Shown one piece after another: positions 528 to 14,352 of a stretch of DNA of 64,000 bases (position 1 is its first letter; every line of letters starts with the position of its first letter). The DNA is taken from positions 28,002 through 92,001 of the IMG/VR virus record IMGVR_UViG_3300021375_000017. One strand, 5' to 3'. Origin of the DNA: a virus. The notes beneath the pieces were generated by a model, which was not told the origin of the DNA, ran no database searches, and saw only the letters and a list, made by a program, of their open reading frames with translations. Made by a program: the position numbers and the translations under genes.

Positions 528-720
528 ACAAACTTGTGACAAACCATATGATCGTCATGATTATAAAATGGTGTACTCAAACAATCAATCTGTGGTGGTA
601 GATTCATGGGAACAAGTTCGACAAATTTGGTGGGAAACTCCATCAGAATTTCAATCTCATATTGAAGTGTTGGATAAAATTAATATCCGTCCCAAACACA
701 TGACCAAAGGATTTGTATGA
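511..720 (+). CDS. hypothetical protein, 69 aa
   Basis: A small soluble protein with no signal peptide or membrane segment. Notable segments are YKMVYSNNQSVVVDSWEQ and VRQIWWETPSEF. It overlaps the AbrB-like gene at its start and the next gene by ATGA at its end, so it belongs to one tightly packed transcription unit that leads into gp44. Function not recognised. Confidence 0.6.
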   Translation: MTKHFKQTCDKPYDRHDYKMVYSNNQSVVVDSWEQVRQIWWETPSEFQSHIEVLDKINIRPKHMTKGFV

Positions 721-908
721 TCATTGATTATGATCACAACCAAGTACCAGTTCCACAAGAAATAGTTGATTTTTGTGACCACTTCACCTATAATGCTGAA
801 CGTGATGAACTGAGGTACCTTGATTGTGTCTATATGCATATGGGGTATTATGGTGGTGACCCTACACAACTTGAACAGATGAGACAACGTATTTTACCTA
901 TTTTTTGA
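717..908 (+). CDS. hypothetical protein, 63 aa
   Basis: Begins in an ATGA overlap with the preceding stop and ends 7 bases before gp44. Acidic, soluble and rich in aromatic residues (YMHMGYYGGDPTQLEQM). Function not recognised. The position suggests co-expression with the clamp-loader genes. Confidence 0.55.
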   Translation: MIIDYDHNQVPVPQEIVDFCDHFTYNAERDELRYLDCVYMHMGYYGGDPTQLEQMRQRILPIF

Positions 909-915
909 ATTTATT

Positions 916-1860
916 ATGAACAATGATTTTTTGTGGTGCGAGCGTTACAGACCACAGACCATTGATGAATGTATCCTCCCTGAGGCTACAAAGAAAACCT
1001 TTAAAGAATTTCTAGATAAGGGTGAGGTTCCTAATCTTCTTCTTTCTGGTCCTCCTGGTGTAGGTAAGACCACTGTCGCTAAAGCCCTTTGTAATCAACT
1101 TGGAGTAGATTCCTATGTCATCAACGGATCCGATGAAGGTAGATTTCTTGACACTGTACGGAATCAGGCCAAGAACTTTGCTTCGACCGTATCACTTTCG
1201 TCAGATGCAAAACACAAAGTCATCATCATTGACGAAGCTGATAACACAGGGAACGATGTACAACTCCTCTTACGGGCAAACATTGAGACGTTTTATAACA
1301 ACTGTCGATTCATCTTCACCTGCAATTATAAAAACAAAATCATCGAACCCCTACATTCTAGGTGTGCCGTCATTGACTTTGGAATCAAGGGAAAAGAACG
1401 ACAGGAAATTGCAGCAGGATTCTTCAAACGTCTCCAAGAAATCCTGGATGCAGAAGGTATTAAATATGATAACAAGGTCTTGGTAGAACTCATCAACAAA
1501 CACTTCCCTGATTGGCGTCGTGTTCTGAATGAGTGTCAAAGGTATTCCACTAGTGGTAGTATTGACTCTGCTATTCTTGCATCATTCTCTGACGTATCTG
1601 TAAATGACCTCATCAAAAACCTCAAAGAAAAGAACTTCTCCGAAGTTCGCAAGTGGGTTGTTTCTAACCTGGACAATGATGCTAGTGTCCTTTTCCGTCG
1701 TATTTACGATGCTCTTGTTGTATCCCTTGAAAACAATAGTATTCCTGCTGCTGTGTTGGTTCTTGCTAAGTATCAGTATCAAATGGCATTTTGTACGGAC
1801 CAGGAGATAAATATGCTTGCTTGTTTGACTGAAATAATGGTGGAGTGCGAGTTCCGTTAA
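916..1860 (+). CDS. gp44: sliding clamp loader large subunit (gp44-like AAA+ ATPase)
   Basis: A 314-residue AAA+ ATPase. Walker A GPPGVGKT is at residues 45-52, Walker B IIIDEAD at 103-109, and the SRC arginine-finger motif at 148-150. In T4, four gp44 and one gp62 load the gp45 clamp at primer-template junctions. The length and the order gp44, gp62, regA fit T4-like phages, although a small Sm-fold-like gene sits between gp44 and gp62. The N-terminal WCERYRPQTIDE is typical of clamp loaders. Confidence 0.96.
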   Translation: MNNDFLWCERYRPQTIDECILPEATKKTFKEFLDKGEVPNLLLSGPPGVGKTTVAKALCNQLGVDSYVINGSDEGRFLDTVRNQAKNFASTVSLSSDAKHKVIIIDEADNTGNDVQLLLRANIETFYNNCRFIFTCNYKNKIIEPLHSRCAVIDFGIKGKERQEIAAGFFKRLQEILDAEGIKYDNKVLVELINKHFPDWRRVLNECQRYSTSGSIDSAILASFSDVSVNDLIKNLKEKNFSEVRKWVVSNLDNDASVLFRRIYDALVVSLENNSIPAAVLVLAKYQYQMAFCTDQEINMLACLTEIMVECEFR

Positions 1861-1877
1861 TTAACTAATAAAAAACA

Positions 1878-2168
1878 ATGAATGTAAAACTATTTCGTAT
1901 TATCACTGGTGAAGAAGTGATTGCAGAACTTCTTTCTGAAGATGACTCAACTGTGACTCTTCAGAATGGTCTAGTTGTTCTCCCTTCAGGACAGAGTGTT
2001 GGGTTTGCTCCATGGGCAATGGTGATTGATAAGGATCAACCTGAGATCACGGTAAGTAGAACACACATCGTATACATCGCTGAGGTTGATGAAGGTATCA
2101 CCAAGAAGTATAATGAAGTATATGGAAGTAAACTGGTAACACCAGACAAAAAGAAATTGATTCTTTAA
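1878..2168 (+). CDS. small Sm-fold-like phage protein (paralogue A)
   Basis: Ninety-six residues starting MNVKLFRIITGEEVIAELL, the strand pattern of small Sm/LSm-like proteins (K-L...TGEEVIA). A central APW motif is followed by a C-terminal part ending in a YNEVY helix. The proteins at 5499 and 5806 share the same layout (K-L..L.....VIA, then PW), so this is one of three related copies near the polymerase genes. An RNA- or protein-binding role is only an inference from the fold resemblance. Confidence 0.6.
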   Translation: MNVKLFRIITGEEVIAELLSEDDSTVTLQNGLVVLPSGQSVGFAPWAMVIDKDQPEITVSRTHIVYIAEVDEGITKKYNEVYGSKLVTPDKKKLIL

Positions 2169-2171
2169 ATT

Positions 2172-2552
2172 ATGGAACTTAAGGACTGGTTGAACTCAAT
2201 TAATTTTACCAAGGAGAATCTGATTAAAGATGAACCTTCTTTGGCAAAAGACTATCCACCATACATCATCAATCGTTGTCTCTCTGGACACATGGATTGT
2301 ATTATGTTTGCCAACGAGATGAACAAGTACAGTTTTTTAGATAAAGATATGCAATATGAATTTTATCTAAATATATTGAGAAAGAGGAAGAGATTCTCTC
2401 CCTGGCTCCGCAAAGATAAGATCTCAGATTTAGAGATTGTGAAACGTTACTATGGTTATAGTAATGAAAAGGCTTCTCAGGCTTTGAAAATTTTATCCAA
2501 TGAGCAACTTAATTTTATTAAACAACGACTTGAAACTGGTGGAAAAAAATGA
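2172..2552 (+). CDS. gp62: clamp loader small subunit (gp62-like)
   Basis: 126 residues, matching the short gp62 of cyanomyoviruses. Segments YPPYIINRCLSGHMD and MNKYSFLDKDMQYEFYLN are typical: phage gp62 proteins carry a PYIINR...DCI..AN.MN block. It has no Walker motifs, as expected for the non-catalytic subunit. It lies between gp44 and regA as in T4 and overlaps regA by ATGA. Confidence 0.88.
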   Translation: MELKDWLNSINFTKENLIKDEPSLAKDYPPYIINRCLSGHMDCIMFANEMNKYSFLDKDMQYEFYLNILRKRKRFSPWLRKDKISDLEIVKRYYGYSNEKASQALKILSNEQLNFIKQRLETGGKK

Positions 2553-2992
2553 CACAGACTGTTGAGCCTCAGGTTGATTGGTCAAGAGACCAAATGGTAG
2601 AGGTTAGGCTAAATGAACCTGATGATTTCTTAAAAGTTCGTGAGACTCTGACCCGTATTGGGGTTGCCTCTAGAAAAGAAAAGAAACTTTACCAATCCTG
2701 TCATATTCTACATAAGCAAGGTAAATACTATATCGTACACTTTAAGGAGTTATTTGCCCTTGATGGTAAATACGCTAATCTTACTGTTAATGATGTTCAG
2801 CGTAGGAACCGTATTACTCGCTTGCTTGTTGATTGGGGCTTGATAGATGTTGTCATCGAAGAATCAATTCAAGATATTGCACCATTGAATCAAATCAAAG
2901 TACTCCCTTACAGAGAGAAGACAGAGTGGATTCTAGAACAGAAGTATAATATTGGTAAGAAGAATAATATCAAGGTTGGCCAACCTGAATAA
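2549..2992 (+). CDS. regA: RegA translational repressor
   Basis: 147 residues. RegA binds initiation regions of early phage mRNAs and represses their translation. Seen here: VEVRLNEPDDFLKVRETLTR near the N-terminus and CHILHKQGKYYIVHFKELF in the core, both RegA-like, with the expected position after gp62 (T4 order 44-62-regA). Its start overlaps the gp62 stop. A hairpin terminator follows about 50 bases downstream. Confidence 0.92.
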   Translation: MTQTVEPQVDWSRDQMVEVRLNEPDDFLKVRETLTRIGVASRKEKKLYQSCHILHKQGKYYIVHFKELFALDGKYANLTVNDVQRRNRITRLLVDWGLIDVVIEESIQDIAPLNQIKVLPYREKTEWILEQKYNIGKKNNIKVGQPE

Positions 2993-3041
2993 ATAAGACT
3001 GAGACTCCTTTCGTGCGGTCTCTACAAAAGTCGGAACACCC

Positions 3042-3077
3042 AAAGACCTCTTGTCTCTTGACAGGGGTCTTTTTTTA
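3042..3077 (+). terminator. Rho-independent terminator after regA
   Basis: An imperfect stem AAGACCTCTTGTC / GACAGGGGTCTT around a TCTT loop, followed by seven T. It closes the clamp-loader/regA unit. The same bases also form the -35 and spacer of a promoter. Confidence 0.75.
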
Positions 3078-3086
3078 TGTTATACT
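3058..3086 (+). promoter_or_regulatory. host-type early promoter overlapping the regA terminator
   Basis: TTGACA at 3058-3063, a 17-base spacer and TATACT at 3081-3086. The -35 lies in the terminator loop and 3' arm, and the T-tract is the spacer. It would drive the SF2 helicase gene at 3159. Confidence 0.65.
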
Positions 3087-3087
3087 G

Positions 3088-3095
3088 TATAAATA
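3088..3095 (+). promoter_or_regulatory. T4-type late promoter (TATAAATA)
   Basis: An exact TATAAATA two bases after the early -10, giving an early/late tandem upstream of the helicase gene. Confidence 0.6.
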
Positions 3096-3158
3096 AATTC
3101 GTTCTCCATGAAAAGAACTTAATTGCTTCTTGATTGGAAATTAAAAAAGAGGTAAACC

Positions 3159-4853
3159 ATGATTACACCAGAGGTGTATGAAGAATTTCGTACAGATGTT
3201 CTTAGCGTAATTAATAATCAAGAAATTTTTACATTAGCAAAAATAAAAGTTTTTATCAAACAAATGGCCGCTGGCAAGTCATGGTTCCAAGGTAAAGAAT
3301 TGTCGCCAGAGTTATATAAAGTATTTTGTAATCAAAAGTTTAATATTCGCGTAGCACCAAAAAACGAAACATGTAACGATGGTATCTTTGAAAAGGAAAC
3401 CGTTGTGGATGGTAAAAAATATAAGTACAGGGACATCACCCACATTAAAGATTCTTTGATGATGGATGAGTTTTTGTCTGATTGTTTTGACACAGATAAT
3501 ATCTATATTTTTTCAATCACTCATGCTAAATTTGGAATTTATTTTGAATGTTTTCTCAGATATGCCCTGTGTACAGTCCTGTGGATTGAAGAAGTTCATG
3601 AGTGTTTAGCAGTAGGTGATCCCGGATCAACTGCATATCAATATGGGACAGGATATAATACTCCATTTGATGCAAAGGTTGCATTGAGATTTAGAGAATG
3701 GATGAAAATTAATGGAAGAGTATTAGCGTTCACTGCTACTCCAACCCTGCATCAGCAAGAGTATGATGAATATATTATTGATGGTGGTATAAAAACAGAT
3801 CAAAAATTCTCTGATTTATTCTATAAGTGTAATGAACTTACAAATCTAGATTCTTTAATCCCTAACCAAGCTTGGGTGGATAAAACTATTCGATATAACC
3901 TTGTTTATAGAAAGACACAGGAATGTGTTGACCCGCATGTAGGAACTATGATTGATAGTTTATTAAACAGGGAATCTGAGTTAGAAGAACAAAAAAAAGT
4001 AGATCCCAATGTTCAATCAAAACTTACATCTCTGATTCGATGTGGTCAGGGTGGTGGAGCCTGGGGATGCCCTATTCATAAAGGTCCATTTGGTGGATCC
4101 GGCAAAAGAGATCCAATTGAACATGATATTGGAATGGTTCAAATTGTTGGAAAGCATCTTCAACAAAGAGGATTTGATTGTAATTCTCGTATGATTGCTA
4201 CTCTTCAGGAATCTGGTAGTGGTGGTAATAGAATCTGGAATTTAAATGGAGAGGTAGTCGAAAAGAAATTGTCATGGGAAGATGTGAAGAATCGTTTAAA
4301 TGATAATGATGATCTACTCCGACACTTAATTGTTGTAAATCGTGGTGGATCTGGAATTAATGTTTATAATATTGGAGCAATTTTTATTGCTTCTGTTAGA
4401 GATGCTCTTTGGTCCAGGGAACACATCCCATGTCAAGTTTTGGGAAGAGGTGTACGTTGTAATTGGGGATATGGAAATATTGGAAGAAAATATAATAACG
4501 ATTTGCGTAATTTTATCCCTGTCAAACAACTTGAAGGTAATATTGAAACTACTGTCGAAGTAATTAAAACAGCAAATAAATTAGATATTTGGTACCCTAG
4601 AGGACTTACCGACAGGGGTAGTAAAACTAAAGTTGATGTATGGGAAGATTCAGTTACTATTTTTAGACGTGACTATTGTAATTCTATACAAGATGGATAT
4701 TCTTGGTTACATGATCAAACCGGAACTAAACCCTCAATGATTGAAAGTGCATTACCTTTACCGGGGAAACTTCTGTGTCCACATTGTGGAAACCCAGTTT
4801 ATTATTCTGGAGATAAAACGGGTGATGGAACACTATTACCATTCTTTGAATAA
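3159..4853 (+). CDS. SF2-type helicase-like protein with C-terminal zinc-knuckle remnant
   Basis: 564 residues. Motifs in order: a degenerate P-loop MAAGKS (36-41), a DExH-like box IEEVHE (143-148), the SAT-like FTATPT (191-196), and motif VI QVLGRGVR (426-433). The second RecA-like lobe includes HLIVVNRGGSGINVYN. Near the end is one CPHC pair without a clear partner pair. The motif set supports a DNA/RNA translocase resembling type III restriction or repair helicases. It differs from the replicative gp41 and I cannot place it in a named phage family. It is flanked by its own early and late promoters and a late promoter behind it, so it looks like an inserted unit. Confidence 0.65.
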   Translation: MITPEVYEEFRTDVLSVINNQEIFTLAKIKVFIKQMAAGKSWFQGKELSPELYKVFCNQKFNIRVAPKNETCNDGIFEKETVVDGKKYKYRDITHIKDSLMMDEFLSDCFDTDNIYIFSITHAKFGIYFECFLRYALCTVLWIEEVHECLAVGDPGSTAYQYGTGYNTPFDAKVALRFREWMKINGRVLAFTATPTLHQQEYDEYIIDGGIKTDQKFSDLFYKCNELTNLDSLIPNQAWVDKTIRYNLVYRKTQECVDPHVGTMIDSLLNRESELEEQKKVDPNVQSKLTSLIRCGQGGGAWGCPIHKGPFGGSGKRDPIEHDIGMVQIVGKHLQQRGFDCNSRMIATLQESGSGGNRIWNLNGEVVEKKLSWEDVKNRLNDNDDLLRHLIVVNRGGSGINVYNIGAIFIASVRDALWSREHIPCQVLGRGVRCNWGYGNIGRKYNNDLRNFIPVKQLEGNIETTVEVIKTANKLDIWYPRGLTDRGSKTKVDVWEDSVTIFRRDYCNSIQDGYSWLHDQTGTKPSMIESALPLPGKLLCPHCGNPVYYSGDKTGDGTLLPFFE

Positions 4854-8612: not shown

Positions 8613-9299
8613 ATGACCATGGGCAAATATTATACTTATGCCTATTTGCGTGAAGATGGAACTCCTTATTATATCGGTAAAGGATTAAAAAACAGGAAAT
8701 CTAAAAAGCATTTTAGAAGAAATGGAAAAGTATTTTCTCCTCCATCAGAAGATAAAATAATTATTCTCAAACAGAATTTAACTGAAAAAGAAGCATTTAA
8801 GCACGAAATTTATATGATTTCCGTTTTGGGTAGAAAAGATTTGGGGACTGGTATTTTGAGAAATTTGACTGAAGGTGGTGAAGGGAGTAGTGGATATAAA
8901 CACTCCGATGAATTTAAATCTAAAATTAGAAAAGTTCAGAGTGGTAGAGTTATTTCCAATACAACTAAAGAAAAAATGAGAAATGCAAATCTTGGAAAAG
9001 TTTTATCTGATGAACATAAAAAAAAGATTGGAGAATCGCAAGGGGGGAAAGTTGTAAATGAGGAGGTTAGAAAAAAAATAAGTAATACACTAAAAGGAAA
9101 AAAACATAGTCCAGAAAGAATTAATAATATAAGAAAGGGAATGGGATGTGAAACTTATAAATTCATTTCCCCAGAAGGTAAAATAATTGAAGTTGATAAT
9201 ATGACGCAATTCTGCTATGATAGAAATCTACAGCAAAGTTGTATGTCAAACATCTGGAACAATAAAAGAAACTTTCATAAAGGATGGAAAAAAGCATAA
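8613..9299 (+). CDS. GIY-YIG homing endonuclease (free-standing, NUMOD3 repeats)
   Basis: 228 residues. The N-terminal nuclease domain shows YYTYAYLREDGTPYYIGKG, with the conserved HEIYMISVLGRKDLG and LTEGGEGSSG blocks. The C-terminal half is repeated NUMOD3-like DNA-binding motifs (SDEHKKKIGES, SPERINNIRKG). An alternative start is the ATG at 8619. It sits between gp43 and uvsX as an insertion and ends in a TAATG overlap with uvsX. It is closely similar to the gene at 56873. In T4 relatives (seg genes) such enzymes spread by cutting homologous sites in co-infecting phage DNA; the target here is unknown. Confidence 0.9.
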   Translation: MTMGKYYTYAYLREDGTPYYIGKGLKNRKSKKHFRRNGKVFSPPSEDKIIILKQNLTEKEAFKHEIYMISVLGRKDLGTGILRNLTEGGEGSSGYKHSDEFKSKIRKVQSGRVISNTTKEKMRNANLGKVLSDEHKKKIGESQGGKVVNEEVRKKISNTLKGKKHSPERINNIRKGMGCETYKFISPEGKIIEVDNMTQFCYDRNLQQSCMSNIWNNKRNFHKGWKKA

Positions 9300-10216
9300 T
9301 GGACTTTTTATCAGATATTGTAAAAGAGATTGGAGATGACTTTACCAAACTTGCTGCCGACATCGATGACACTGAGACATATGTGGACACAGGTTCGTTC
9401 GTTCTTAACGCTCTTGTATCTGGGTCTATCCGTGGTGGTGTATCTGGGAATAAAATTACTGCAATTGCTGGCGAAAGTTCTACTGGAAAGACTTTCTTTT
9501 CACTCGCAGTGGTCAAGAACTTCTTGGATACTAATCCCGATGCATATTGCCTTTATTTTGATACTGAGGCAGCAGTTAATAAGTCACTACTAGTAAGTCG
9601 TGGCATTGATCTGAATCGACTAGTTGTTGTTAATGTCGTTACCATTGAGGAGTTTAGGAGTAAGGCTCTCAAGGCGGTAGACATGTATTCAAAAAAACCT
9701 GAAGATGAACGTAAACCTTGTATGTTTGTGTTAGATTCTTTAGGAATGCTTTCTACAGAGAAAGAAATCACTGATGCCCTCAATGAGAAACTTGTCCGTG
9801 ATATGACAAAATCTCAGTTGATTAAAGGGGCTTTCAGAATGTTGACTCTTAAATTGGGTCAAGCCAAAATACCAATGATTGTAACCAATCACACCTATGA
9901 TGTCATCGGAGCTTATGTTCCTACAAAGGAAATGGGTGGGGGTTGTTTAGTTGCGGGAACTAAGATACAAACAGAAAATGGTTCTATTCCTATTGAATCT
10001 ATTCAAGTTGGTGACAAAGTGAGAACTATGTTTGGTTATTCATCAGTTACTGACACTTTCCATTTCACCGATAAAGATGTTTATGAATTGGAATTGGAAG
10101 ATGGAGAAACTATTAGATGTTCTGGCGAACATAAGTTTTTAGTAGATACTGGAGATGGTTATGAATGGAAATCCGTTACTGAGTTATTACCTTCAGATAC
10201 TATCAAATCTATGTGA
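9299..10216 (+). CDS. uvsX: UvsX recombinase N-part fused to N-terminal half of a split intein
   Basis: The first 215 codons are UvsX/RecA (GESSTGKT Walker A at 58-65) and end at TKEMGGG. Cys-1 of an intein follows at 9944: CLVAGTKIQT (block A), then about 90 residues including CSGEHKFLV (block B), then a stop. The rest of intein and UvsX is encoded separately at 10890. The joined extein, GGG then SGLKYAAS, restores the usual UvsX sequence of 336 residues. The start is the ATG at 9299 overlapping the upstream stop. Active recombinase would need trans-splicing. Confidence 0.93.
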   Translation: MDFLSDIVKEIGDDFTKLAADIDDTETYVDTGSFVLNALVSGSIRGGVSGNKITAIAGESSTGKTFFSLAVVKNFLDTNPDAYCLYFDTEAAVNKSLLVSRGIDLNRLVVVNVVTIEEFRSKALKAVDMYSKKPEDERKPCMFVLDSLGMLSTEKEITDALNEKLVRDMTKSQLIKGAFRMLTLKLGQAKIPMIVTNHTYDVIGAYVPTKEMGGGCLVAGTKIQTENGSIPIESIQVGDKVRTMFGYSSVTDTFHFTDKDVYELELEDGETIRCSGEHKFLVDTGDGYEWKSVTELLPSDTIKSM

Positions 10217-10221
10217 AAGTT

Positions 10222-10258
10222 GGTTCTGGACTAAATAATAATAATTGAGTCCAGAACC
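10222..10258 (+). promoter_or_regulatory. perfect inverted repeat enclosing a late-promoter-like TAAATA
   Basis: GGTTCTGGACT (10222-10232) pairs exactly with AGTCCAGAACC (10248-10258). The 15-base loop carries TAAATA repeats starting at 10232. The HNH start codon begins at the next base. Transcripts from upstream would form the hairpin; one starting inside it would lack the 5' arm. Confidence 0.65.
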
Positions 10259-10930
10259 TTGTTTTTATCCAATAAGTATACTGATTGTTATTTCCGTATT
10301 ATTAATAAGGCAAATCTTAGGAAACTTCCTCAAATTACTGAATGTCATCATATTATACCTAAATCATTAGGTGGAGGAGAAGAACCAGAAAACAAAGTAT
10401 ATCTAACACCAAGAGAACATTTTGTCTGTCATCATCTTCTTCTGAAGATGTTAGAGGGAAAATCAAAACAGAAAATGTGTTATGCTTTTTATAGAATGAA
10501 CTCCAGTAATAATGGAGTTAGGTGTGAAAATCTCAATTCTTATGATAGAATAAGAGAACACTACTCTCATCTCACTTCTGGAGTAAATAACCCATTTTAT
10601 GGGAAGGGGCATTTTGGATATTCTAACCCAATGTCCAAACCTGAGGTTCGGGAGAAACATAAACAAATAGTTTCTTCACCTGAACATAGAAAGATGATGA
10701 GTGATAAAATGTCTGGTGAAAATAATCCATTTTACGGAAGAACTCATTCAGATGAAACCAAGAAACATCTTTCTGAGTTGGCGTCTCAGAGAACAGGTGA
10801 AAACTCTTCCCGTTATGGGAAGAAACACAGACGAGTTGTTTGTGAACACTGCCAAAAAGAAATTACTTACCCAATGTATAAGAGGTGGCATGGAACGAAT
10901 TGTAAAGTCTATCAAGAAAATAAAGACTGA
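10259..10930 (+). CDS. HNH homing endonuclease in the uvsX split-intein gap
   Basis: 223 residues if the TTG at 10259 is used, giving a family-like NKYTDCYFRIINKA start. The HNH core is ECHHIIPKSLGGGEEPENK with TPREHFVCHHLL. NUMOD3-like repeats follow (NPFYGRTHSDETKKHLSE), then a C-terminal zinc-binding CEHCQKE...HGTNC. It lies between the two intein half genes in the same direction and overlaps the C-half gene by 41 bases. It probably mobilises the whole interrupted-gene cassette by cutting intein-free uvsX. Confidence 0.88.
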   Translation: MFLSNKYTDCYFRIINKANLRKLPQITECHHIIPKSLGGGEEPENKVYLTPREHFVCHHLLLKMLEGKSKQKMCYAFYRMNSSNNGVRCENLNSYDRIREHYSHLTSGVNNPFYGKGHFGYSNPMSKPEVREKHKQIVSSPEHRKMMSDKMSGENNPFYGRTHSDETKKHLSELASQRTGENSSRYGKKHRRVVCEHCQKEITYPMYKRWHGTNCKVYQENKD

Positions 10931-11366
10931 GGATGTTTATGACATCACAGTTGAAGGAGAACATCATTATATTCTTGGTAATGGTGTCGTGTCTCACAAT
11001 TCTGGCCTTAAGTATGCAGCGTCTACAATCATCTATCTCTCAAAGAAAAAGGAAAAGGATGGAACAGAAGTGGTCGGCAATCTTATCAAGGCTAAGACTG
11101 CTAAGTCGCGTTTAAGTAAAGAGAATAAAGATGTTACTATACGTCTCTATTACGATGAACGTGGTCTTGATAGGTATTACGGTCTCTTAGAACTTGGAGA
11201 ACTTGGTGGACTATGGAAAAACGTTGCAGGACGTTATGAGATGGATGGTAAGAAAGTCTATGCTAAGGCCATCCTGAAAGAACCTGAGACTTATTTTACA
11301 CCTGAAGTGATGGAAAAACTAGATGAAATCGCAAAAGAACAATTCTCTTATGGTTCGTCATTATGA
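10890..11366 (+). CDS. uvsX: C-terminal intein half fused to UvsX C-part
   Basis: Starts at the ATG behind AAGAGG inside the HNH gene. Residues 1-37 are the intein C-half, containing DVYDITVEGEHHYILGNG (block F) and ending VVSHN. Splicing would join at Ser+1 (11001). The remaining 121 residues, from SGLKYAASTIIYLSKKK, are the UvsX C-terminal part. The intein N-half (90 aa) plus this 37 aa gives a normal minimal split intein. Without splicing, UvsX lacks its C-terminal third. Confidence 0.92.
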   Translation: MERIVKSIKKIKTEDVYDITVEGEHHYILGNGVVSHNSGLKYAASTIIYLSKKKEKDGTEVVGNLIKAKTAKSRLSKENKDVTIRLYYDERGLDRYYGLLELGELGGLWKNVAGRYEMDGKKVYAKAILKEPETYFTPEVMEKLDEIAKEQFSYGSSL

Positions 11367-11865
11367 TGTTGTTCCAGAGTCATACTGTAAAAAACTAATT
11401 GAGATATTTGAAAACTCCTCTAATCAGGAGTTTATCAATAATGATCACAAACCATGTTTCAGTCAGGTTAATCTGAGTAAAGAAAATCCTGAAATGGTCA
11501 GACAAATCATTCCCATTATTAAAGGTGTACATACTCTGTATAAGAAGGAAACCAAATCTTATTTTCTTCCAGAGTTAAATGCCCTTGAAGAACTTAGGAT
11601 TAAAAGATACCTTCCTAATGGTGAGGAAAGGTTTGATGAACATGTAGACGTGACTGACTATCCCTCATCAAGAAGGTCAGTTGCATTTTTATTTTATCTG
11701 AATACTAATGATGGTAATACAGTTTTTTCTAAACAGAAGTTGAACATTAAACCAAAGTGTGGTAGGGTAGTAGTATTCCCTCCTACATGGGAATATCCTC
11801 ATGCAAGACTCCCCCCAACAACTAGTAACAAATACATCATGAGTACATATATTCACTATGGATAA
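11350..11865 (+). CDS. 2OG-Fe(II) oxygenase
   Basis: 171 residues with a prolyl-4-hydroxylase-like double-stranded beta-helix. Iron ligands are H98-V-D100 (ERFDEHVDV) and H151 (YPHAR); K161 is a possible 2-oxoglutarate ligand. Such genes are common in cyanomyoviruses; the substrate is not known. The ATG chosen overlaps the uvsX end by 17 bases. It ends with an overlap into gp41. Confidence 0.85.
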   Translation: MVRHYDVVPESYCKKLIEIFENSSNQEFINNDHKPCFSQVNLSKENPEMVRQIIPIIKGVHTLYKKETKSYFLPELNALEELRIKRYLPNGEERFDEHVDVTDYPSSRRSVAFLFYLNTNDGNTVFSKQKLNIKPKCGRVVVFPPTWEYPHARLPPTTSNKYIMSTYIHYG

Positions 11866-12490
11866 GGTTGAATTTTTAGTTCTGAAAAATCTAATACACA
11901 ATGAAAAATACTTGAGAAAGGTTCTTCCATTCATTAAAGAAGAATATTTTGATGATACTAAATATAAGGTAATCTTCGACGAGATCTCTACCTTTACTGC
12001 TGAGTATAACGAACTCCCTACAAAAGAGATTCTCAATATTGAGATTGAAAAGAGAAGAGATATTAATGAGGACTCTTATAAACAGATTTCTCATGTAGTT
12101 AATTGTCTTGAGGACGATGTTGTAGAGTTTGATTGGTTGGTTAACACTACTGAGAAGTGGTGTCGTGACCGTGCCATTTATCTTGCCTTGATTGAATCCA
12201 TTCAGATTGCTGATGGAGGAGATGTCAAGAAGGCACCAGATGCCATTCCATCTATTCTGTCTGATGCTCTGGCAGTTAGTTTTGACAACCATGTAGGACA
12301 TGATTACCTTGAAGATTATGAATCACGATACGAGTCTTATCACAGGAAGGAGGAGAGAATTGAATTCGATCTCGACTATTTTAACAAAATCACGAAAGGT
12401 GGGCTCCCTAACAAAACTCTTAACATCGCACTTGCTGGTTGCGTTCATCCAGAAACTAAAGTTAAAATTAGATTTAAGAAGATTTCTTGA
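11858..12490 (+). CDS. gp41: gp41 replicative helicase N-part with very short intein N-fragment
   Basis: The first 194 residues are the gp41 N-terminal region up to TLNIALAG. An intein Cys follows at 12440 (CVHPETKVKIRF), and translation stops after only 16 intein residues. The rest of the intein and the helicase are encoded from 13177. The break falls inside the Walker A loop: ALAG joined to TGVGKS restores GTGVGKS, so neither half can bind ATP normally before splicing. The last 17 bases overlap the reverse-strand HNH gene. Confidence 0.92.
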   Translation: MDKVEFLVLKNLIHNEKYLRKVLPFIKEEYFDDTKYKVIFDEISTFTAEYNELPTKEILNIEIEKRRDINEDSYKQISHVVNCLEDDVVEFDWLVNTTEKWCRDRAIYLALIESIQIADGGDVKKAPDAIPSILSDALAVSFDNHVGHDYLEDYESRYESYHRKEERIEFDLDYFNKITKGGLPNKTLNIALAGCVHPETKVKIRFKKIS

Positions 12491-13142
12491 TTATGGAATT
12501 TGGTGCTGGTTCTCCAGTTCCAAATTTCCATCCTTCGTTTAATTTAGTATCAATATTTTCTGGTAGTATTCTTTTCCATCCCTTTGTTCCTGGTAAGTAC
12601 ATTACCTTTTTTCCTTTATGTGCTTTACCTCCAAGAGATGCTCTTTGTTGTCTTCCTTGATTAGACGCCCAGTAATTGAATTCTTTAGATGCTCTTTGCT
12701 TTCCTCCAAAAGATGCTCTTTCCTTTCTACCTTCTTCTGTACTCCAGTAATAAAAATTTTTAATGTTATCTTTTAAATATTCTTGTTTTTGAGTTTCCAT
12801 TCCTTTGACCATCCATTCTTTTCTTTCATCTATTGGAACAGAAAAGAAACCAATCTTATTATCTCTACAAAATTCCCCAATTATTTTTCTATATTGTGGA
12901 GATAAGTTTGCTCCTAACATTTTCATAGACCTTAAGTCATTTGGATTTTTGTATATTTTCCATAACAAATAATGTGCTATGATATGTTCTCTAACATTTA
13001 GGTATGTAAGGTTACAATCATCATCTGTTCCTCCCATATGTTTAGGAACAACATGATGTTCGTGTAGTCCTGAATATTTTTTATAATCTTCTTTTCTTGA
13101 CTTATTGCCTTTGCATAAGTTAGAATAGATACGATCAAACAT
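12474..13142 (-). CDS. HNH homing endonuclease, antisense, in the gp41 split-intein gap
   Basis: 222 residues on the reverse strand between the two gp41 pieces. HNH core: HEHHVVPKHMGGTDDD and NVREHIIAHYLLW. The middle holds degenerate repeats (GRKERASFGGK, GRQQRASLGGK) typical of DNA-binding tails of this family, and the end has KGWKRILPENID. It is a family relative of the HNH in uvsX. Opposite orientation means it cannot be read from the gp41 transcript; a reverse-strand TATAAATA lies 22 bases before its start. Confidence 0.88.
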   Translation of the reverse strand: MFDRIYSNLCKGNKSRKEDYKKYSGLHEHHVVPKHMGGTDDDCNLTYLNVREHIIAHYLLWKIYKNPNDLRSMKMLGANLSPQYRKIIGEFCRDNKIGFFSVPIDERKEWMVKGMETQKQEYLKDNIKNFYYWSTEEGRKERASFGGKQRASKEFNYWASNQGRQQRASLGGKAHKGKKVMYLPGTKGWKRILPENIDTKLNEGWKFGTGEPAPNSIIKKSS

Positions 13143-13164
13143 TCCCTGTCCCTGCTACTGCTAT

Positions 13165-13172
13165 TATTTATA
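13165..13172 (-). promoter_or_regulatory. late promoter for the antisense HNH gene
   Basis: The reverse strand reads TATAAATA exactly, 22 bases before the ATG (13142). No enclosing hairpin is visible here, unlike the sense-oriented endonuclease genes. Confidence 0.6.
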
Positions 13173-13176
13173 TAAA

Positions 13177-14352
13177 ATGTGGATTGAAAAAGAAACAACA
13201 ATTGCTGAAATCAAAACATTACTTGATAATGGATATGAAGTAGAAGTTGATTCTCCCGATGGATATGTTCCAGTTAATTTCTTTATTAACAAAGGAATGT
13301 ATGATGAATATGTTTTGAGAATCGATGGCATTGATGAACTTATAAGATGCAATGCCAATCATTTATTTCAGACATCTTTGGGGTGGATGAGTGCATCGCA
13401 TCTTTATAAAAAATATAAAATAATGCATTTTTTAACCGAGAGTGGTTATAAACTTGGTAGTGTATTTAAAACAGGAAATCAAATACCTATTGTTGATATT
13501 AATGTAAATCATCCAAATCACAGGTATTATACTAATGGAGTTTCTTCTCATAATACTGGCGTCGGGAAATCTCTATTCATGTGCCATGTGGCTAGCTCCG
13601 TCTTGCTCCAAGGGAGGAACGTTCTCTACATTACAATGGAGATGGCAGAAGAGCGCATTGCTGAAAGAATTGATGCGAACCTCTTGAATGTAAATATCCA
13701 GGAAATTGTTGACCTTCCAAAACAAATGTTTGAAACAAAGGTTACAAACCTGGCACAAAAGACTCAAGGTCACCTAATTATTAAGGAGTATCCTACTGCC
13801 TCTGCTCATGCTGGACACTTCAAATCACTTCTTAATGAACTTGCACTTAAGAAGTCATTTCGACCTGATATTATTTTCATTGATTACCTTAATATATGTT
13901 CTTCCGAAAGATATCGCGGAAATAGCACTGTCAATTCATATTCATATATTAAAGCAATTGCTGAAGAACTTAGAGGACTTGCTGTTGAAGCAAACGTCCC
14001 TATCATATCTGCCACTCAGACCACTCGTTCTGGTTATGGTAGCTCTGACGTTGAGCTTACTGACACTAGTGAGTCCTTTGGTCTCCCTGCTACTGCTGAT
14101 CTTATGTTTGCCCTTATTTCGACTGAAGAGTTGGAATCGTTGGGACAAATACTTGTAAAGCAATTGAAGAATAGGTATAATGATTACTCTGTCCATAGAC
14201 GTTTTGTTGTTGGTATTGATCGTGCCAAGATGAGATTATATGATTGTGAACAGTCTGCACAGGATGACCTTCTTGACAATGGTAAGGAAGAAGAGTACAA
14301 TAATGATGAACAAGAAAAACCTAAAAAATCATTTAGTGGATTTAAATTTTAA
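13177..14352 (+). CDS. gp41: long intein C-fragment fused to gp41 helicase C-part
   Basis: Residues 1-126 are the larger part of the split intein: CNANHLFQTS is block B and IPIVDINVNHPNHRYY with GVSSHN is the C-terminal block. The extein starts at Thr+1 (13555) with TGVGKS and runs 265 residues through RecA-like helicase motifs (ITMEMAEERIAERIDA; DIIFIDYLN; ISATQTTRSG). N- and C-exteins sum to 459 aa, near T4 gp41 (475 aa). No clear Shine-Dalgarno precedes this ATG. Confidence 0.92.
   Translation: MWIEKETTIAEIKTLLDNGYEVEVDSPDGYVPVNFFINKGMYDEYVLRIDGIDELIRCNANHLFQTSLGWMSASHLYKKYKIMHFLTESGYKLGSVFKTGNQIPIVDINVNHPNHRYYTNGVSSHNTGVGKSLFMCHVASSVLLQGRNVLYITMEMAEERIAERIDANLLNVNIQEIVDLPKQMFETKVTNLAQKTQGHLIIKEYPTASAHAGHFKSLLNELALKKSFRPDIIFIDYLNICSSERYRGNSTVNSYSYIKAIAEELRGLAVEANVPIISATQTTRSGYGSSDVELTDTSESFGLPATADLMFALISTEELESLGQILVKQLKNRYNDYSVHRRFVVGIDRAKMRLYDCEQSAQDDLLDNGKEEEYNNDEQEKPKKSFSGFKF

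What the first reader, a model, noticed from the sequence alone, without database searches (positions are those of the whole stretch)
11858..14352. gp41 helicase split by an intein cut at a very early, atypical position, inside the ATP-binding loop
Seen: gp41 stops 16 residues into an intein (C at 12440). The remaining 126 intein residues, including blocks B and the C-terminal blocks, are on a separate gene that also carries the helicase C-part. The two halves rejoin exactly in Walker A (ALAG + TGVGKS). Known: most natural split inteins divide near residue 100; a few environmental T4-like helicase and terminase sequences have short N-pieces like this. Inferred: phage replication depends on trans-splicing before gp41 can bind ATP.
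Basis: partly seen in the sequence, partly recalled or inferred. Interest (0 to 1): 0.88.

Follow-up and report, generated by a model that had tools for sequence, protein, structure and literature searches.

The report
Split helicase rejoined by tiny intein
A T4-like cyanophage encodes its replication helicase in two genes, with a DNA-cutting gene wedged between them on the opposite strand, and very probably joins the two proteins with a self-splicing intein whose first half is only 16 residues; the mechanism is of a known kind, but related phages carry whole, split, nuclease-free and apparently rejoined versions of this intein, so its natural breaking and mending can be followed.

Summary
gp41-N (11858-12490) ends 16 residues into an intein. 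gp41-C (13177-14352) begins with the other 126 intein residues, and the exteins meet at ALAG|TGVGKS in the P-loop, exactly as in intein-free relatives. This is a "fractured gene" with a VidaL-type atypically split intein, hence a new member of a known kind. Trans-splicing is inferred; it was not tested.

New here is a natural series at one site: no intein; contiguous intein; split with HEN in either orientation; split with decayed or deleted HEN (a 20-nt HEN remnant in L125); and contiguous inteins 97% identical to this one that carry 8 nt of HEN sequence, probably rejoined. Minus-strand inserts carry a T4-type late promoter for the HEN (45/49 versus 0/444 background windows) and usually a sigma70-like promoter for gp41-C. 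Synonymous divergence shows that the intein+HEN unit moved between phages recently relative to its host gene.

The parts
11858..12439 (+). gp41 helicase N-extein (194 aa), ending ...LNIALAG
   Evidence: PHROG 19, E 7e-46; contiguous in intein-free relatives
12440..12490 (+). N-intein, 16 aa CVHPETKVKIRFKKIS plus stop; the last codons and the stop lie in DNA shared with the HEN 3' end
   Evidence: aligned with VidaL N-intein
12474..13142 (-). HNH homing endonuclease gene (222 aa) filling the split, antisense to gp41
   Evidence: PHROG 655 homing endonuclease, E 9e-16; purifying selection dN/dS 0.10-0.21
13097..13126 (+). sigma70-like promoter (TTGACT-18 nt-TAGAAT) pointing at gp41-C, inside the HEN 5' coding end
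   Evidence: weak alone (shuffle p 0.09), supported by recurrence across divergent inserts
13165..13172 (-). T4/cyanophage late promoter TATAAATA for the HEN gene
   Evidence: 45/49 distinct minus-HEN regions versus 0/444 background windows; consensus NATAAATA in PMC2984593
13177..13554 (+). C-intein, 126 aa, with block-B-like NANH and terminal ..NHRYYTNGVSSHN
   Evidence: AlphaFold model of the 97% identical contiguous homologue matches VidaL 6vgv
13555..14352 (+). gp41 C-extein, starting T+1 GVGKS (rest of the Walker A loop), DnaB_C domain

Best explanation
This is a fractured replicative-helicase gene held together by a VidaL-type atypically split intein. An HNH homing-endonuclease gene inserted, on the opposite strand, into a mini-intein between its second and third beta strands. 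That cut the gp41 reading frame after 16 intein residues. The two gp41 proteins are made separately: gp41-N from the upstream operon, and gp41-C probably also from a sigma70-like promoter at the edge of the insert. They bind through the intein halves and splice in trans (Cys1, penultimate His, terminal Asn, Thr+1) to give an intact P-loop. The HEN, read late from its own TATAAATA promoter, presumably cuts intein-free gp41 alleles, so that the intein+HEN unit spreads by homing. Shown: anatomy, homology, selection on both halves and the HEN, mobility, promoter motifs. Inferred: splicing, promoter use, HEN target.
For: The halves rejoin exactly where about 75 intein-free relatives are continuous. 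Best solved match is VidaL 6vgv, aligned across the same split point. AlphaFold (pLDDT 94.9) of the 97% identical contiguous homologue L089 matches 6vgv with TM 0.87, and the split falls just after the residue 7-13 strand, the S1 site described for VidaL and PolB16. Cys1, terminal HN and T+1 are kept across the loci listed. dN/dS is 0.06-0.25 in IntC and 0.10-0.21 in the HEN. Window versus L087: dS is 0.12 in IntC and 0.24 in HEN, but 0.67 in C-extein and saturated in N-extein. Intein presence needs at least 8 changes on the extein tree. Late promoter 45/49 versus 0/444. In 11 of 14 insert representatives the sigma70-like score just before gp41-C exceeds every other window of the gap on that strand.
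Against: No splicing, expression or cleavage data exist for this phage. gp41-C has no clear Shine-Dalgarno sequence. The sigma70-like site is weak in the window itself (p 0.09) and absent in 3 of 14 representatives. There is no excess DNA identity next to the insertion site, so no co-conversion tract was detected.
Confidence: 0.88

Rival explanations
1. The two halves work as separate subunits without splicing, as in genes-in-pieces ribonucleotide reductase.
For: Such a case is known for a phage NrdA split by a HEN (cited in PMC10448857).
Against: Here the break lies inside the P-loop and both sides carry a complete, conserved intein with all splicing residues under purifying selection. Unneeded intein residues should decay. 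Some relatives carry the intein uninterrupted.
Confidence: 0.05
2. The split gene is a dying or defective allele in a replication-deficient phage, or a metagenome minority variant.
For: The contig is incomplete (92 kb) and comes from a metagenome.
Against: Identical arrangement in other assemblies (L082, L088), more than 80 related contigs, both exteins and both intein halves under purifying selection.
Confidence: 0.03
3. Assembly error joining two populations at 12490-13177.
For: None beyond the metagenomic origin.
Against: Same junctions in independent samples at 100% identity, and in divergent relatives with different exteins.
Confidence: 0.01
4. For the series: the 97% identical contiguous inteins (L089 group) are the ancestral, never-split form rather than rejoined ones.
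For: An AU test does not reject a tree with that group outside the split loci (p 0.32). With L154 as the only outgroup the two trees are equally likely.
Against: They sit in a 100/95 supported clade with window-like split loci, log-likelihood 12.65 better than the alternative. Their linker contains ATTTCTTG, the HEN 3' end, and it is one residue shorter than in the distant contiguous relatives.
Confidence: 0.25

Closest known systems
VidaL atypically split intein (PDB 6VGV/6VGW)
   Same: 16-residue N-intein, split just after the second beta strand, P-loop insertion in its relatives, same fold (TM 0.87) and same split point in alignment.
   Different: Only about 30% identical. VidaL belongs with UvsX-type inteins (SCTP-2 UvsX intein matches it at 1e-44). 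The present family sits in gp41 helicase with Thr+1.
Fractured genes (Dassa et al. 2009, NAR 37:2560; paper not held, known from citations and from memory)
   Same: Enzyme gene broken by a split intein with a free-standing HEN gene in between, mainly in phages.
   Different: HEN here is HNH/PHROG 655, not the Vsr-like family. Insert is antisense, with its own late promoter.
gp41-1 canonical split intein
   Same: Also in T4-like gp41 helicase.
   Different: Other site (SGY^S), canonical split of about 88/37 aa; weak similarity only. L090-093 carry both inteins in one gene.
PolB16 OarG and AceL-TerL atypical split inteins
   Same: Very short N-inteins (15 and 25 aa).
   Different: Different host genes; PolB16 is cysteine-less, AceL-TerL is split after the first helix.
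UvsX of Pseudomonas phage PA5oct and kin (cultured)
   Same: UvsX P-loop split intein with 17-aa N-intein, HEN-like gene between, C-part 36% identical.
   Different: Different host gene; the intervening 477-aa ORF looks Vsr-like (my reading; no PHROG hit).

Membership tests
Atypically split intein (VidaL-type) | N-intein of about 15-37 aa, ending just after beta strand 2 | tested here: met
   16 aa; strands 7-13 and 19-24 flank residue 16
Atypically split intein (VidaL-type) | Hint/intein fold | tested here: met
   Model of L089 homologue (97% to window) versus 6vgv TM 0.87, E 2.5e-12
Atypically split intein (VidaL-type) | Splicing residues: Cys/Ser 1, block-B His, terminal His-Asn, Cys/Ser/Thr +1 | tested here: met
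   C1, NANH, HN126, T+1; conserved in relatives
Atypically split intein (VidaL-type) | Halves associate and splice in trans | not testable with these tools
   Needs co-expression
Fractured gene (Dassa type) | Conserved enzyme gene broken by a split intein | tested here: met
Fractured gene (Dassa type) | Free-standing homing-endonuclease gene between the halves | tested here: met
   HEN 13142-12474 minus, PHROG 655
Fractured gene (Dassa type) | Vsr-like HEN (reported in about half of loci, recalled from memory; not obligatory) | tested here: not met
   HNH-type HEN instead
gp41-1 canonical split intein | Insertion at SGY^S and canonical split | tested here: not met
   Site ALAG^T; IntN 16 aa; the window reads TRSGYGSSD uninterrupted
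Homing element | Horizontal movement of intein+HEN | tested here: met
   dS of intein and HEN well below extein dS in several pairs; scattered presence on extein tree
Homing element | HEN cuts the intein-free allele | not testable with these tools
   Needs cleavage assay

The most novel reading that the evidence does not exclude
The gp41 P-loop site preserves a living cycle of intein breakage and mending: homing endonucleases of several types and both orientations fracture a mini-intein at its VidaL split point and bring the promoters that let both halves be made. Later HEN loss leaves either a stable HEN-less split intein (L125/126, L147, L132, L170/171) or, by in-frame deletion, a rejoined contiguous intein (L089 group), all while trans- or cis-splicing keeps an essential helicase working.
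Probability: 0.65. Interest if true: 0.75.

Novelty: new member of a known kind. Interest (0 to 1): 0.6.

Why it matters
How split inteins arise, and whether splitting is reversible, has been argued from a few scattered examples. Here one insertion site in one phage gene shows every stage in contigs only a few per cent apart in the intein, so split and contiguous versions (97% identical) can be compared directly in splicing assays. The family also supplies many new natural N-inteins of 14-20 residues, useful for protein semisynthesis; 14-residue ones (L026, L188, L109) would be shorter than the 15-residue record quoted in PMC10189870.

Tried and rejected
Co-conversion around the insertion site: DNA identity in 60-nt bins is no higher than in intein-free pairs of equal divergence. 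Pfam and NCBIfam gave no hit for the HEN or the N-half; PHROGs did. Intein-containing isolates: none with this gp41 intein in 50,697 phage records; nearest are PA5oct-like UvsX inteins at 36%. AU tests do not settle the polarity of the L089 contiguous group (p 0.51 with L154 as sole outgroup; p 0.32 with more outgroups). The primary papers on VidaL and fractured genes were not held. Two inserts my HEN queries missed (L191/192) turned out to hold another, unrelated HNH-like ORF.

Full report
Observation. ORF 11858-12490 (+) is the N part of a T4-like gp41 helicase and ends ...LNIALAG|CVHPETKVKIRFKKIS-stop. ORF 13177-14352 (+) starts with 126 residues of intein ending ..NHRYYTNGVSSHN and goes on TGVGKS.. 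as the helicase C part. PHROG 19 (DnaB-like helicase) is matched at positions 161-361 by the first and 362-595 by the second extein, so nothing of the helicase is missing at the junction. In about 75 relatives without an intein the same two parts are joined at exactly this residue. The break lies between G and T of the Walker A loop.

What lies between. Its 3' end overlaps the gp41-N 3' end by 17 nt, and the last N-intein codons after K14 are HEN-end DNA (ATTTCTTGATT...). In loci where extra genes separate the HEN from gp41-N, the HEN still ends ..EPAPNSK(V/I)KK or similar and the N-intein ends differently, so the variable tail after about residue 14 is set by whatever was inserted.

Not an artefact. 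L082 and L088, from other assemblies, have identical intein and HEN, and more than 80 further contigs share the split with divergent exteins. There is no second gp41 in the 92-kb contig. The nearest intact gp41 proteins among isolates, 80-84% identical, are from Synechococcus T4-like phages, so the host is probably a cyanobacterium.

What it works like. phmmer of the fused halves finds VidaL (6vgv) first, aligned through the split point. A model of the 97% identical contiguous homologue L089 (pLDDT 94.9) matches 6vgv with TM 0.87 and other inteins less well. The break after residue 16 falls in the loop between strands 7-13 and 19-24, the S1 site that PMC13014065 gives for VidaL and PolB16. That paper lists VidaL with a 16-aa N-intein; PMC10189870 calls the 15-aa PolB16 N-intein the shortest characterised. 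VidaL itself groups with UvsX-type inteins (1e-44 to the SCTP-2 UvsX intein), so the gp41 family is a distinct, about 30% identical relative. Both intein parts and the HEN are under purifying selection. Trans-splicing is therefore very likely, but no experiment on this phage exists.

Mobility. Between the window and L087, dS is 0.12 in the C-intein and 0.24 in the HEN, but 0.67 in the C-extein and saturated in the N-extein. Other pairs point the same way, though less sharply, and L003/L138 does not. On an extein tree intein presence needs 17 changes, at least 8 forced by well-supported branches (quick tree). The intein+HEN unit has therefore moved between phage lineages. I found no co-conversion tract, and cleavage of the empty allele is untested.

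Control signals. A late promoter NATAAATA (the S-PM2 consensus, PMC2984593) stands before the minus-strand HEN in 45 of 49 distinct regions, against 0 of 444 background windows; in the window it is TATAAATA at 13172-13165. On the other strand, 11 of 14 representative inserts have their best sigma70-like site in the 130 nt before gp41-C, better than any other window of the gap on that strand; L004 has a perfect TTGACA-17-TATAAT. The loci tested with a plus-strand HEN or no HEN show no such enrichment. In the window the site is TTGACT-18-TAGAAT at 13097-13126, weak on its own (p 0.09). From memory, Dassa et al. 2009 already noted control elements brought in with the endonuclease; the paper was not held.

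The series. Of 106 loci (near-duplicates included, so not frequencies): 79 split with HEN minus, 7 split with HEN plus, 12 contiguous, 8 scored without a recognised HEN. Of those 8, L191/192 hold another HNH-like ORF, leaving 6 truly HEN-less splits. L125/126 keep 20 nt of HEN end, and gp41-C now starts from an ATG inside that remnant. L147 has a stop/start overlap TAATG; in L132 the halves overlap by 11 nt in different frames. L111, L119, L127 and L128 have decayed HENs. L089-093 and L095 are contiguous, 97% identical to the window's C-intein, with linker ..AGGAAG-ATTTCTTG-GTGGATTG.., whose ATTTCTTG equals the HEN end. They sit in a 100/95 clade with window-like split loci, but the alternative is not rejected (AU p 0.32; p 0.51 with L154 as the only outgroup). 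I put 0.75 on rejoining.

Verdict. The finding is correct and well described, and its interpretation is sound but incomplete. As a thing it is a new member of a known kind (fractured gene, VidaL-type split intein). Its worth lies in the series around it, which makes the origin and reversal of intein splitting directly testable.

Noticed in passing
window 9284-11366: UvsX next door is a second fractured gene: N part with about 90 aa of canonical N-intein (9284-10216), an HNH/NUMOD3 HEN of the same PHROG 655 on the plus strand (10259-10930), and a C part within 10701-11366. The intein profile finds no other intein in the 92-kb contig.
   Followed up: partly
L090-L093: One gp41 gene carries two inteins: the contiguous VidaL-type intein in the P-loop and the gp41-1 canonical split intein at SGY^S.
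   Followed up: partly
L197 (Pseudomonas phage PA5oct, NC_071039) 1260-4266: Cultured jumbo phages have a P-loop-split UvsX with a 17-aa N-intein and a HEN-like gene between the halves; the record notes MS evidence for the C-part gene.
   Followed up: partly
L199 (LR756500) 644-3906: A PhoH-like ATPase is split in its P-loop by an intein with a short N part (CLYPDEKIKIYKMKSKNKINSKNQQE) and an endonuclease-like ORF between.
   Followed up: no
L002, L097, L099, L105, L109, L117, L131 and others, gap between gp41 halves: Extra phage genes (a recurring MDAQ.FRSLQEAYMEVVEN family, a SprT-like metallopeptidase) have accumulated between gp41-N and the HEN, so the split site acts as an insertion spot.
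   Followed up: no
L026, L188-190, L109, L129: N-inteins of only 14 residues (CVHPDTKIRVRIRK, CVHPDTLITVRVKK, CVHPETKVKIRFRK), shorter than the 15-aa PolB16 record; splicing untested.
   Followed up: no
L132: The halves overlap by 11 nt in different frames, and the P-loop reads TNVGKT instead of TGVGKS; a frameshift or coupled start could join or pair them.
   Followed up: no
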